64,000 bases of DNA from NCBI GenBank assembly GCA_947561715.1, contig OX387202.1, positions 21,031,001-21,095,000 of the forward strand, read 5' to 3'. A model generated the notes under the pieces. It searched no databases. It was not told the origin of the DNA and worked only from the letters and a program-made list of their open reading frames with translations. Numbering within the stretch: the stretch's first letter is position 1; each line of letters starts with the position of its first letter. The DNA is from Ascidia mentula. Its lineage: Eukaryota > Chordata > Ascidiacea > Phlebobranchia > Ascidiidae. Positions 53,247 to 53,955 of the stretch are shown here, one piece after another. The position numbers and the translations under genes were made by a program.

Positions 53247-53445
53247 CTACGTAACAGAAAATTTGCAATTTGAAAAAAACCTTTCCACCGCTTTGTCTAA
53301 AATTATAATCCAACATTCCAATTAACCACAACATGAAGGTGTTAAGCGCGCTATATTTCCGACACATAACTCGCAGACCTAATTGTTGCTGGACAAGAAC
53401 CAAAATTTTGAAAATGAAAGCCAAAGCTAAAATGCTGTTATTCAT

Positions 53446-53488
53446 TAGTAAACGTTTCGAACACTAACTGCGTTCATCATCAGTACTA
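53446..53488 (-). ncRNA. Hammerhead-ribozyme-like core, left arm of the foldback
   Basis: Read on the minus strand: stem I TAGTA (53484-53488), canonical CTGATGA (53477-53483), one extra T, stem II GAACGC/GTGTTC with loop AGTTA (53459-53475), GAAA (53455-53458), CGTT, then the stem I complement TACTA (53446-53450). The conserved hammerhead core bases are all present. A stem III of almost no length (self-complementary AACGTT) would have to work as a dimer, as is known for hammerheads of Penelope-like retroelements and retrozymes. Confidence 0.5.
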
Positions 53489-53867
53489 CAATGAGTGCAT
53501 GCAAGAAAAGCGTCAGGGTAATAAAGGACTGAGCAGGCAGAAGGGAAACAGCAGCAGCAACAACGCGCAACAAGCCAGAGGCATGTCACGTGACAACAAC
53601 ATGGAAGCACAGCAGCGACGTCATCATTAGCAATGTGTCAGACTGCAGTACGGACCTAGATGTTGAATAGGTAAAGCGGTTTGGAGCTATCATCCACGTT
53701 CAGTGCTGGTTTATGGTGTTGAGCCCAAAGTTTTACACAACTGTAATATAAAATCTAAATTACTAATTCTGGAAACACTTTACATCCAACACCATAAACC
53801 AGCACTGAAAGTGGATGATAGCTCCAGTCCTTTATTACCCTGACGCTTTTCTTGCATGCACTCATTG

Positions 53868-53910
53868 TAGTATTGATGATGAACGCAGTTAGTGTTCGAA
53901 ACGTTTACTA
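53868..53910 (+). ncRNA. Hammerhead-ribozyme-like core, right arm of the foldback
   Basis: The mirror copy on the plus strand, with the same stems but TTGATGA in place of CTGATGA, so the first core base is changed. Confidence 0.4.
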
Positions 53911-53955
53911 TTACTAATGTATAACAGCATTTTAGCTTTGGCTTTCATTTTCAAA

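What the first reader, a model, noticed from the sequence alone, without database searches (positions are those of the whole stretch)
53407..53955. Foldback element with hammerhead-like cores in both arms
The minus-strand core in the left arm has the canonical CTGATGA, a six-pair stem II and a five-pair stem I flanking GAAACGTT. The right arm has the same on the plus strand with one core base changed. The self-complementary AACGTT in the place of stem III is the form reported for dimeric hammerheads. Together with the elements at 59317 and 31770 this makes three unrelated-looking palindromes with one shared RNA layout, which is unlikely to be chance.
Basis: partly seen in the sequence, partly recalled or inferred. 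Interest (0 to 1): 0.75.

Follow-up and report, generated by a model that had tools for sequence, protein, structure and literature searches.

The report
Penelope retrotransposon ends carrying hammerhead ribozymes
The mirror-image element is two head-to-head, shortened copies of a Penelope-type jumping gene in what is probably a sea squirt, each carrying the small self-cutting RNA motif that such elements are already known to have, and its copies hint at how the element writes itself into both strands of a DNA break.

Summary
The left arm (minus strand) and right arm (plus strand) each carry a hammerhead layout: CTGATGA (TTGATGA on the right), one extra U, six-pair stem II, GAAA, self-complementary ACGT, U, five-pair stem I. 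The elements at 59317 and 31770 share it. A structure-aware scan finds 4 in the window against a mean of 0.017 in 60 Markov sequences.

It is not a new foldback class. The element encodes HHKPALNVDDSSKPLYLFNI-stop, identical to the end of a GIY-YIG frame elsewhere in the genome, has a 13-bp target duplication, and a 'tail' on one side only: two head-to-head 3' ends of a Penelope-like element (PLE). Of 30 fetched GIY-YIG loci, 22 have the hammerhead downstream. Inverted pLTRs with one tail, and minimal PLE hammerheads, are published.

Two counts add something. Close opposite-strand pairs are 3'-ends-out in 17 of 17 (GIY-YIG) and 13 of 13 (family A cores). Two-armed insertions with a found duplication carry exactly one tail in 22 of 23. 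Both fit priming from both target strands at two RNA start sites, which is inferred. The mitochondrial code suggests a tunicate.

The parts
53394..53406 (.). left target-site duplication CAAGAACCAAAAT
   Evidence: 13-bp direct repeat found by script
53407..53722 (-). left PLE unit, minus strand: ORF C-terminus, 3' pLTR, hammerhead, short open stretch beyond it (inferred start of the next unit's ORF); ends at start site 1 (TTTTCAAA), no tail. Inner end near 53722 is approximate
   Evidence: alignment with other copies; C-terminus identical to the L063 ORF
53446..53488 (-). hammerhead layout, left arm: CTGATGA core, extra U, stem II 6 pairs, stem I 5 pairs, ACGT stem III; predicted cut after GAAACGTT
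53656..53718 (-). end of the PLE GIY-YIG reading frame, HHKPALNVDDSSKPLYLFNI-stop
   Evidence: translation, identical to the C-terminus of the L063 ORF, which matches Pfam GIY-YIG
53723..53981 (+). right PLE unit, plus strand, head-to-head with the left one; encodes NIKSKLLILETLYIQHHKPAL..., has an internal deletion relative to the left unit; carries the tail
53868..53910 (+). hammerhead layout, right arm, C3 changed to T
53956..53981 (+). 'tail' GTTATAAACTCCAAATATTTTGCACC, present on this side only (start site 2)
53982..53994 (.). right target-site duplication CAAGAACCAAAAT
59230..59240 (.). left target-site duplication ATCCCTTTATT of the second element (family B)
59241..59549 (.). family B element: tail of about 76 bp on the left, 95-bp arms 59317-59411 / 59457-59551 (the last two bases overlap the duplication), hammerhead layout in each arm (left one with C3 changed)
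59449..59491 (+). family B hammerhead layout
59550..59560 (.). right target-site duplication ATCCCTTTATT of family B
32864..32905 (+). family C hammerhead layout (TTGATGA), inside the element called 31770
   Evidence: 41 matches including itself among 40 scored of 166 candidates

Best explanation
The foldback is a Penelope-like retroelement insertion in a probable tunicate genome: two 5'-truncated copies of the element's 3' end joined head to head. Each has the last codons of the RT/GIY-YIG frame, the pseudo-LTR, a minimal type I hammerhead and a short stretch beyond it. Proposed mechanism: the element protein cuts both target strands and each cut end primes its own cDNA. One starts at RNA site 1 just past the hammerhead, the other at site 2, 26-84 nt further on, which leaves the one-sided tail. 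The two cDNAs meet in the middle and repair leaves a target duplication of 11-15 bp. The hammerhead probably serves tandem element RNA, cutting between units as a dimer or with protein help; it appears in both arms because both cDNAs copy that RNA end. Shown here: anatomy, duplications, tail, link to GIY-YIG frames, orientation and one-tail counts. Inferred: two-strand priming, identity of the two ends with RT start sites, and any ribozyme activity.
For: ORF C-terminus in the window element identical to the L063 GIY-YIG frame. Arms ending at TTTTCAAA, tail on one side, direct repeats of 11-15 bp. Family A sequence in 5 of 30 fetched GIY-YIG loci (L063, L066, L070, L071, L091). A GIY-YIG frame between head-to-head family B hammerheads in L093. 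Hammerhead with both stems downstream in sense in 22 of 30 GIY-YIG loci, upstream in antisense in 7 of 30, none in the two other arrangements. Opposite-strand GIY-YIG neighbours within 6 kb 3'-out in 17 of 17; family A core pairs within 3 kb 13 of 13 among 100 listed of 187. One tail in 22 of 23 two-armed insertions with a found duplication. An open 892-aa frame in a 2870-bp tandem; its 617-aa part held in L077 has RVT_1 and GIY-YIG. Published: a lizard PLE protein cuts and extends both strands and starts RT at two sites that bound the tail (PMC11167929, main text read); inverted pLTR, one tail and TSD in Adineta (PMC3846280, passages).
Against: No intact family A frame was seen. L040/L041 (one duplicated insertion) has two arms and no tail; C70:3802608/3802742 seems to have a tail on one side and about half a tail on the other (table ranges). 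L010, L015 and L045 have a non-tail arm ending 8 to about 40 nt short of site 1. L031, L038 and L064 have two arms but no clean duplication and were left out. [quoted passage not shown] PMC3846280 prefers self-priming on an antisense template. No activity was measured here, and Rfam does not call these motifs. Not every GIY-YIG match was checked to be a PLE.
Confidence: 0.85

Rival explanations
1. A foldback or MITE-like DNA transposon with long terminal inverted repeats in which hammerhead-like sequence has arisen or been captured.
For: Long inverted arms (99% and 96% complementary), many dispersed copies, target duplications.
Against: The two ends are unequal: one side has an extra tail. 22 of 40 fetched loci show one arm only, or no opposed arm, within the stretch fetched. 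Duplications vary from 11 to 15 bp. The element carries the C-terminus of a GIY-YIG frame.
Confidence: 0.02
2. Metazoan non-LTR retrozyme: a small non-autonomous direct-repeat element with type I hammerheads spreading through circular RNA.
For: Small hammerhead-bearing dispersed element in an animal; PLEs are the proposed mobilisers of retrozymes (PMC7761336, passages).
Against: Retrozymes are described as repeats of about 150-300 bp between hammerheads. Here close core pairs are inverted in 13 and tandem in 3 of 16, and the unit contains ORF coding sequence.
Confidence: 0.04
3. Still a Penelope-like element, but the head-to-head arms formed by self-priming (snap-back) on an antisense RNA or cDNA and not by priming from both target strands.
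For: Proposed for Adineta PLEs because palindromes lie at the inverted junctions and the arrangement is mostly head-to-head (PMC3846280, passages). The window element has a 53-bp inverted stretch (87%) at its centre.
Against: Snap-back of one strand does not predict that the two outer ends stop at two different points; the one-tail count (22 of 23) is easier if each end is a separate start. Two-strand extension has been seen in vitro (PMC11167929).
Confidence: 0.2

Closest known systems
Penelope/Poseidon-type Penelope-like elements with endonuclease, e.g. Pen2a_Av of Adineta vaga and PAc of Anolis
   Same: RT plus GIY-YIG frame, pseudo-LTRs, inverted pLTR, one-sided tail, short target duplications, head-to-head arrangement (PMC3846280 passages, PMC11167929 main text)
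   Different: Different sequences and host. Tail 26-44 bp in family A, L067, L072 and L081, but 71-84 bp in family B, L087 and L090. The window copies lack most of the frame. Clade not tested by a tree.
Minimal type I hammerheads of PLEs (Cervera and de la Pena 2014; Lunse et al. 2017; neither held, known here only through papers that cite them)
   Same: pLTR location, no proper helix III, self-complementary junction that could pair as a dimer
   Different: One extra base (U or A) between CTGANGA and stem II in 12 of 12 representatives. An extra core nucleotide is known from a viroid hammerhead (title in a reference list only); whether it is reported for PLEs was not checked.
Metazoan non-LTR retrozymes
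   Same: small animal elements with type I hammerheads, perhaps mobilised by PLEs
   Different: direct tandem repeats and circular RNA; close pairs here are mostly inverted, circular RNA not testable

Membership tests
Penelope-like elements | RT and GIY-YIG in one frame in related full units | tested here: met
   L077 frame: RVT_1 E 5.6e-10, GIY-YIG E 1.2e-6. That is another family in the same genome. For family A the L063 frame (322 aa) matches GIY-YIG only in Pfam; it contains a YVDD motif that I read as RT from recall.
Penelope-like elements | The window element carries PLE coding sequence | tested here: met
   C-terminal HHKPALNVDDSSKPLYLFNI-stop on the minus strand, identical to L063
Penelope-like elements | pLTRs, direct or inverted, with an optional tail at one end | tested here: met
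Penelope-like elements | short target-site duplication | tested here: met
   CAAGAACCAAAAT, 13 bp; random pairs of 175-nt stretches share a 12-mer in 13 of 3000
Penelope-like elements | RT phylogeny with PLEs or telomerase | not tested
   no tree built
Hammerhead ribozyme | CUGANGA ... GAAA core with stems I and II | tested here: met
   the right arm has C3 changed, and an extra base precedes stem II
Hammerhead ribozyme | covariation of stems between families | tested here: met
   12 of 12 paired at stem I positions 1-4 and stem II positions 1-3, several pair types at six of seven. Rows were picked by a structure scan and stem III length was set per family, so the stem I count leans towards pairing. 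A scan by core letters alone gave both stems in 22 of 26 downstream sense cores; L065, L079 and second cores in L063 and L070 fail.
Hammerhead ribozyme | match to an Rfam hammerhead model | tested here: not met
   none at gathering in the window or at E<=5 in 53350-54010
Hammerhead ribozyme | self-cleavage | not testable with these tools
   needs an in vitro assay
Metazoan retrozyme | direct tandem repeats with one hammerhead per unit | tested here: not met
   close family A pairs: 13 inverted, 3 tandem, among 100 listed cores

The most novel reading that the evidence does not exclude
In two-armed PLE insertions the two ends are not chosen independently: one cDNA starts at RNA site 1 and its partner at site 2. 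Each such insertion would then be made by a paired complex in which the two target strands are primed at different places, perhaps on one RNA, with the hammerhead region as the shared landing pad and the tail marking which strand used the outer site.
Probability: 0.3. Interest if true: 0.6.

Novelty: new member of a known kind. Interest (0 to 1): 0.33.

Why it matters
It settles what the palindromes are: Penelope-like insertions for families A and B, and by the shared hammerhead layout probably for C. It shows that a hammerhead in both arms of a foldback need not mean a two-ribozyme device. The counts give genomic support for two-strand priming by Penelope-like elements, a step for which the one demonstration I read is in vitro with a lizard protein, and they give a testable statement (one tail per two-armed insertion) about how the two ends are coordinated.

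Tried and rejected
Rfam gave no hammerhead; its best hits (mir-2513 and the like, all below gathering) lie on the inverted centre. A DNA-transposon reading was dropped because the outer ends are unequal and the unit carries PLE coding sequence. MAFFT on 12 diverse hammerheads misaligned stem II, so pair counts were made by anchoring on core letters in a script. Folding of the 60-nt pieces was not informative on its own. No covariance model was built. Two literature searches for Penelope hammerheads in tunicates (penelope-like/hammerhead/tunicate, any two terms, 25 of 43 papers listed; penelope and ascidian, 11 of 11 listed) showed no title or abstract start on that subject; most of the listed papers were not opened. 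Cervera 2014 and Lunse 2017 are not held.

Full report
Observation. The sequence at 53407-53955 is as described. On the minus strand the left arm reads TAGTA-CTGATGA-T-GAACGC/AGTTA/GTGTTC-GAAA-CGTT-TACTA. The right arm reads the same on the plus strand with TTGATGA. A scan that asks for core, stem II, stem III and stem I finds four sites in the window: both arms, 59456 (+) and 32868 (+). First-order Markov sequences of the same size give 0.017 on average in 60 trials, maximum 1. Rfam does not report it, and the folding z-scores of four 60-61-nt pieces are weak.

Host. The window lies in a 195.8-Mb assembly in 79 contigs. In its COX1 frame positions that I recall as conserved glycines (MIGGFGNWL and similar) read as glycine when AGR codes for glycine, the ascidian mitochondrial code. 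The host is therefore probably a tunicate; no tree was made.

Copies. A search with the element returned 142 matches from 40 scored of 703 candidates. Forty loci were fetched. The core with at most two mismatches occurs 187 times, against 0 for the reversed pattern. The alignment of 55 arms shows that the left arm of the window and many others stop at or near TTTTCAAA, whereas others continue GTTATAAACTCCAAATATTTTGCACC before unique flank begins. Within the fetched stretches 18 of 40 loci show opposed arms and 22 do not. The window copy is flanked by CAAGAACCAAAAT at 53394-53406 and 53982-53994.

Identity. GIY-YIG frames were sought in the genome (121 matches, 150 scored of 382 candidates; 30 loci fetched). 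Family A sequence is found in five of the 30 (L063, L066, L070, L071, L091); in L063, L066 and L070 it runs from the end of the frame into the hammerhead arm. The L063 frame ends ...YIQHHKPALNVDDSSKPLYLFNI and matches Pfam GIY-YIG. The window element encodes HHKPALNVDDSSKPLYLFNI-stop on the minus strand at 53718-53656, and its right unit encodes NIKSKLLILETLYIQHHKPAL on the plus strand. The foldback is thus two head-to-head 3' ends of this Penelope-like element. Family B is likewise linked: in L093 a frame matching GIY-YIG (22.6 bits, exactly at the cut-off) lies between two head-to-head family B hammerheads. Family B in the window has an 11-bp duplication and a tail on the left. Family C is a dispersed hammerhead family (41 matches including itself, 40 scored of 166 candidates), split in the window by an insertion at about 31825-32863 that I call hAT-like from its recalled terminal sequence. 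I did not link family C to a PLE frame directly.

Hammerheads of the PLEs in this genome. Scanning the 30 GIY-YIG loci by core letters only, without asking for stems, gave 26 cores downstream in sense, of which 22 (in 22 loci) have both stems; 7 upstream in antisense, all with both stems; 2 upstream in sense, neither with both stems; and 0 downstream in antisense. Each locus holds only about 1.5 kb on either side, so upstream tandem neighbours would mostly be out of view. Twelve representatives, 3 from the window and 9 from other loci, keep stem I pairs 1-4 and stem II pairs 1-3 in 12 of 12, with changes on both sides between families; stem II pair 1 is invariant; outer pairs fail more often (stem I pair 5, 9 of 12; pair 6, 3 of 12; stem II pair 4, 8 of 12; pair 5, 7 of 12). 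All twelve have one extra base, U or A, before stem II. L065 and L079, whose stem I is short, were not in that table.

Two rules. First, neighbouring GIY-YIG matches within 6 kb on opposite strands are minus-then-plus, that is 3' ends outward, in 17 of 17; 6 further pairs are in tandem (not every match was checked to be a PLE). Among the 100 listed of 187 family A cores, opposite-strand pairs within 3 kb are outward in 13 of 13, plus 3 tandem. Second, two-armed insertions with a found target duplication carry exactly one tail in 22 of 23. Family A: the 18 two-armed loci come down to 14 insertions (L020-L022 and L040-L042 taken as duplicates); 12 have a duplication, 11 of them with one tail (L009, L010, L015, L017, L020, L030, L034, L035, L039, L043, L045) and one with none (L040); L031 and L038 have none found and are left out. 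Family B: 5 of 5 fetched palindromic copies (L049-L053). Other loci: 8 tested, L072 and L073 being one insertion; 6 of 6 with a duplication have one tail (L067, L072, L081, L087, L090, L093), and L064 has no duplication and is left out. With independent choice at even odds this has probability 2.9e-6, which ignores any hidden relatedness. A separate search with the arm end plus tail (40 scored of 435) listed four more opposed pairs by table ranges only, duplications not checked: C52:10379123/10379238, C73:14293732/14293856 and C70:16509472/16509629 look one-tailed, while C70:3802608/3802742 looks like one tail plus about half a tail. Tail lengths are 26-44 bp for family A, L067, L072 and L081, and 71-84 bp for family B, L087, L090 and L093, from duplication offsets.

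Mechanism. Frangieh et al. 2024 (PMC11167929, main text read) report that a lizard PLE protein cuts and extends both target strands, that RT starts at two adjacent internal sites, and that the sequence between them is the genomic tail. They place the hammerhead at the pLTR-ORF junction and see cleavage only with protein present. The orientation and tail counts fit that picture: every outer end would be an RT start and the two ends would use different starts. The same paper also reports no apparent difference in start site between the strands in vitro, insertion by hammerhead mutants, and no RNA-seq ends at the cut site; the first does not forbid pairing of different starts within one molecule but gives no support to it, and the others leave the hammerhead's role open. 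The older view (PMC3846280, passages) explained head-to-head arrangements by self-priming on antisense template; it already describes inverted pLTRs, a 9-bp duplication and a 31-bp tail optionally present at one of the inverted pLTRs. So the architecture is known, and what is added is the counts and the pairing of ends.

Why the foldback is not a two-ribozyme device. The left hammerhead is on the minus strand and the right one on the plus strand. A transcript of the element has one sense hammerhead and its own antisense, and its predicted fold is one long arm-to-arm duplex (-317.1 kcal/mol, z -32.5). Dimer action, suggested for PLE hammerheads in a review (PMC7761336, passages), would need head-to-tail units, such as the 2870-bp tandem at C67:6.13-6.15 Mb.

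Verdict. Real motif, real shared layout, ordinary kind of element: new families of a known retroelement class. Moderate extra interest comes from the end-pairing rule.

Noticed in passing
31825-32863: A hAT-like non-autonomous element (CAGTGGCGGATCTAGGGG ... CTAGATCCGCCACTG; label recalled) has inserted into the family C hammerhead hairpin, with an 8-bp imperfect duplication GATATCAA/GATATTGA; related copies elsewhere.
   Followed up: partly
53682-53826: The centre of the window element contains a 53-bp inverted stretch made of the ORF C-terminus from both units, and the right unit lacks about 150 bp present in the left one, possibly a template jump.
   Followed up: partly
L074-L078 (C67:6134028-6146916): Cluster of five GIY-YIG matches, four in open frames of 885-892 aa and one in 559 aa: two in tandem on the minus strand, then three in tandem on the plus strand, 2870-bp period, outward facing.
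   Followed up: partly
37632-43061: Two related sets of long frames with repeated QFLKMEFEPV units, apparently a local duplication.
   Followed up: no
23205-23278: tRNA gene, the only Rfam match above gathering in the window.
   Followed up: no
C52:19022960-19114155: Ten family C hammerhead matches on one strand at irregular steps of about 5 to 25 kb, perhaps a segmental array.
   Followed up: no
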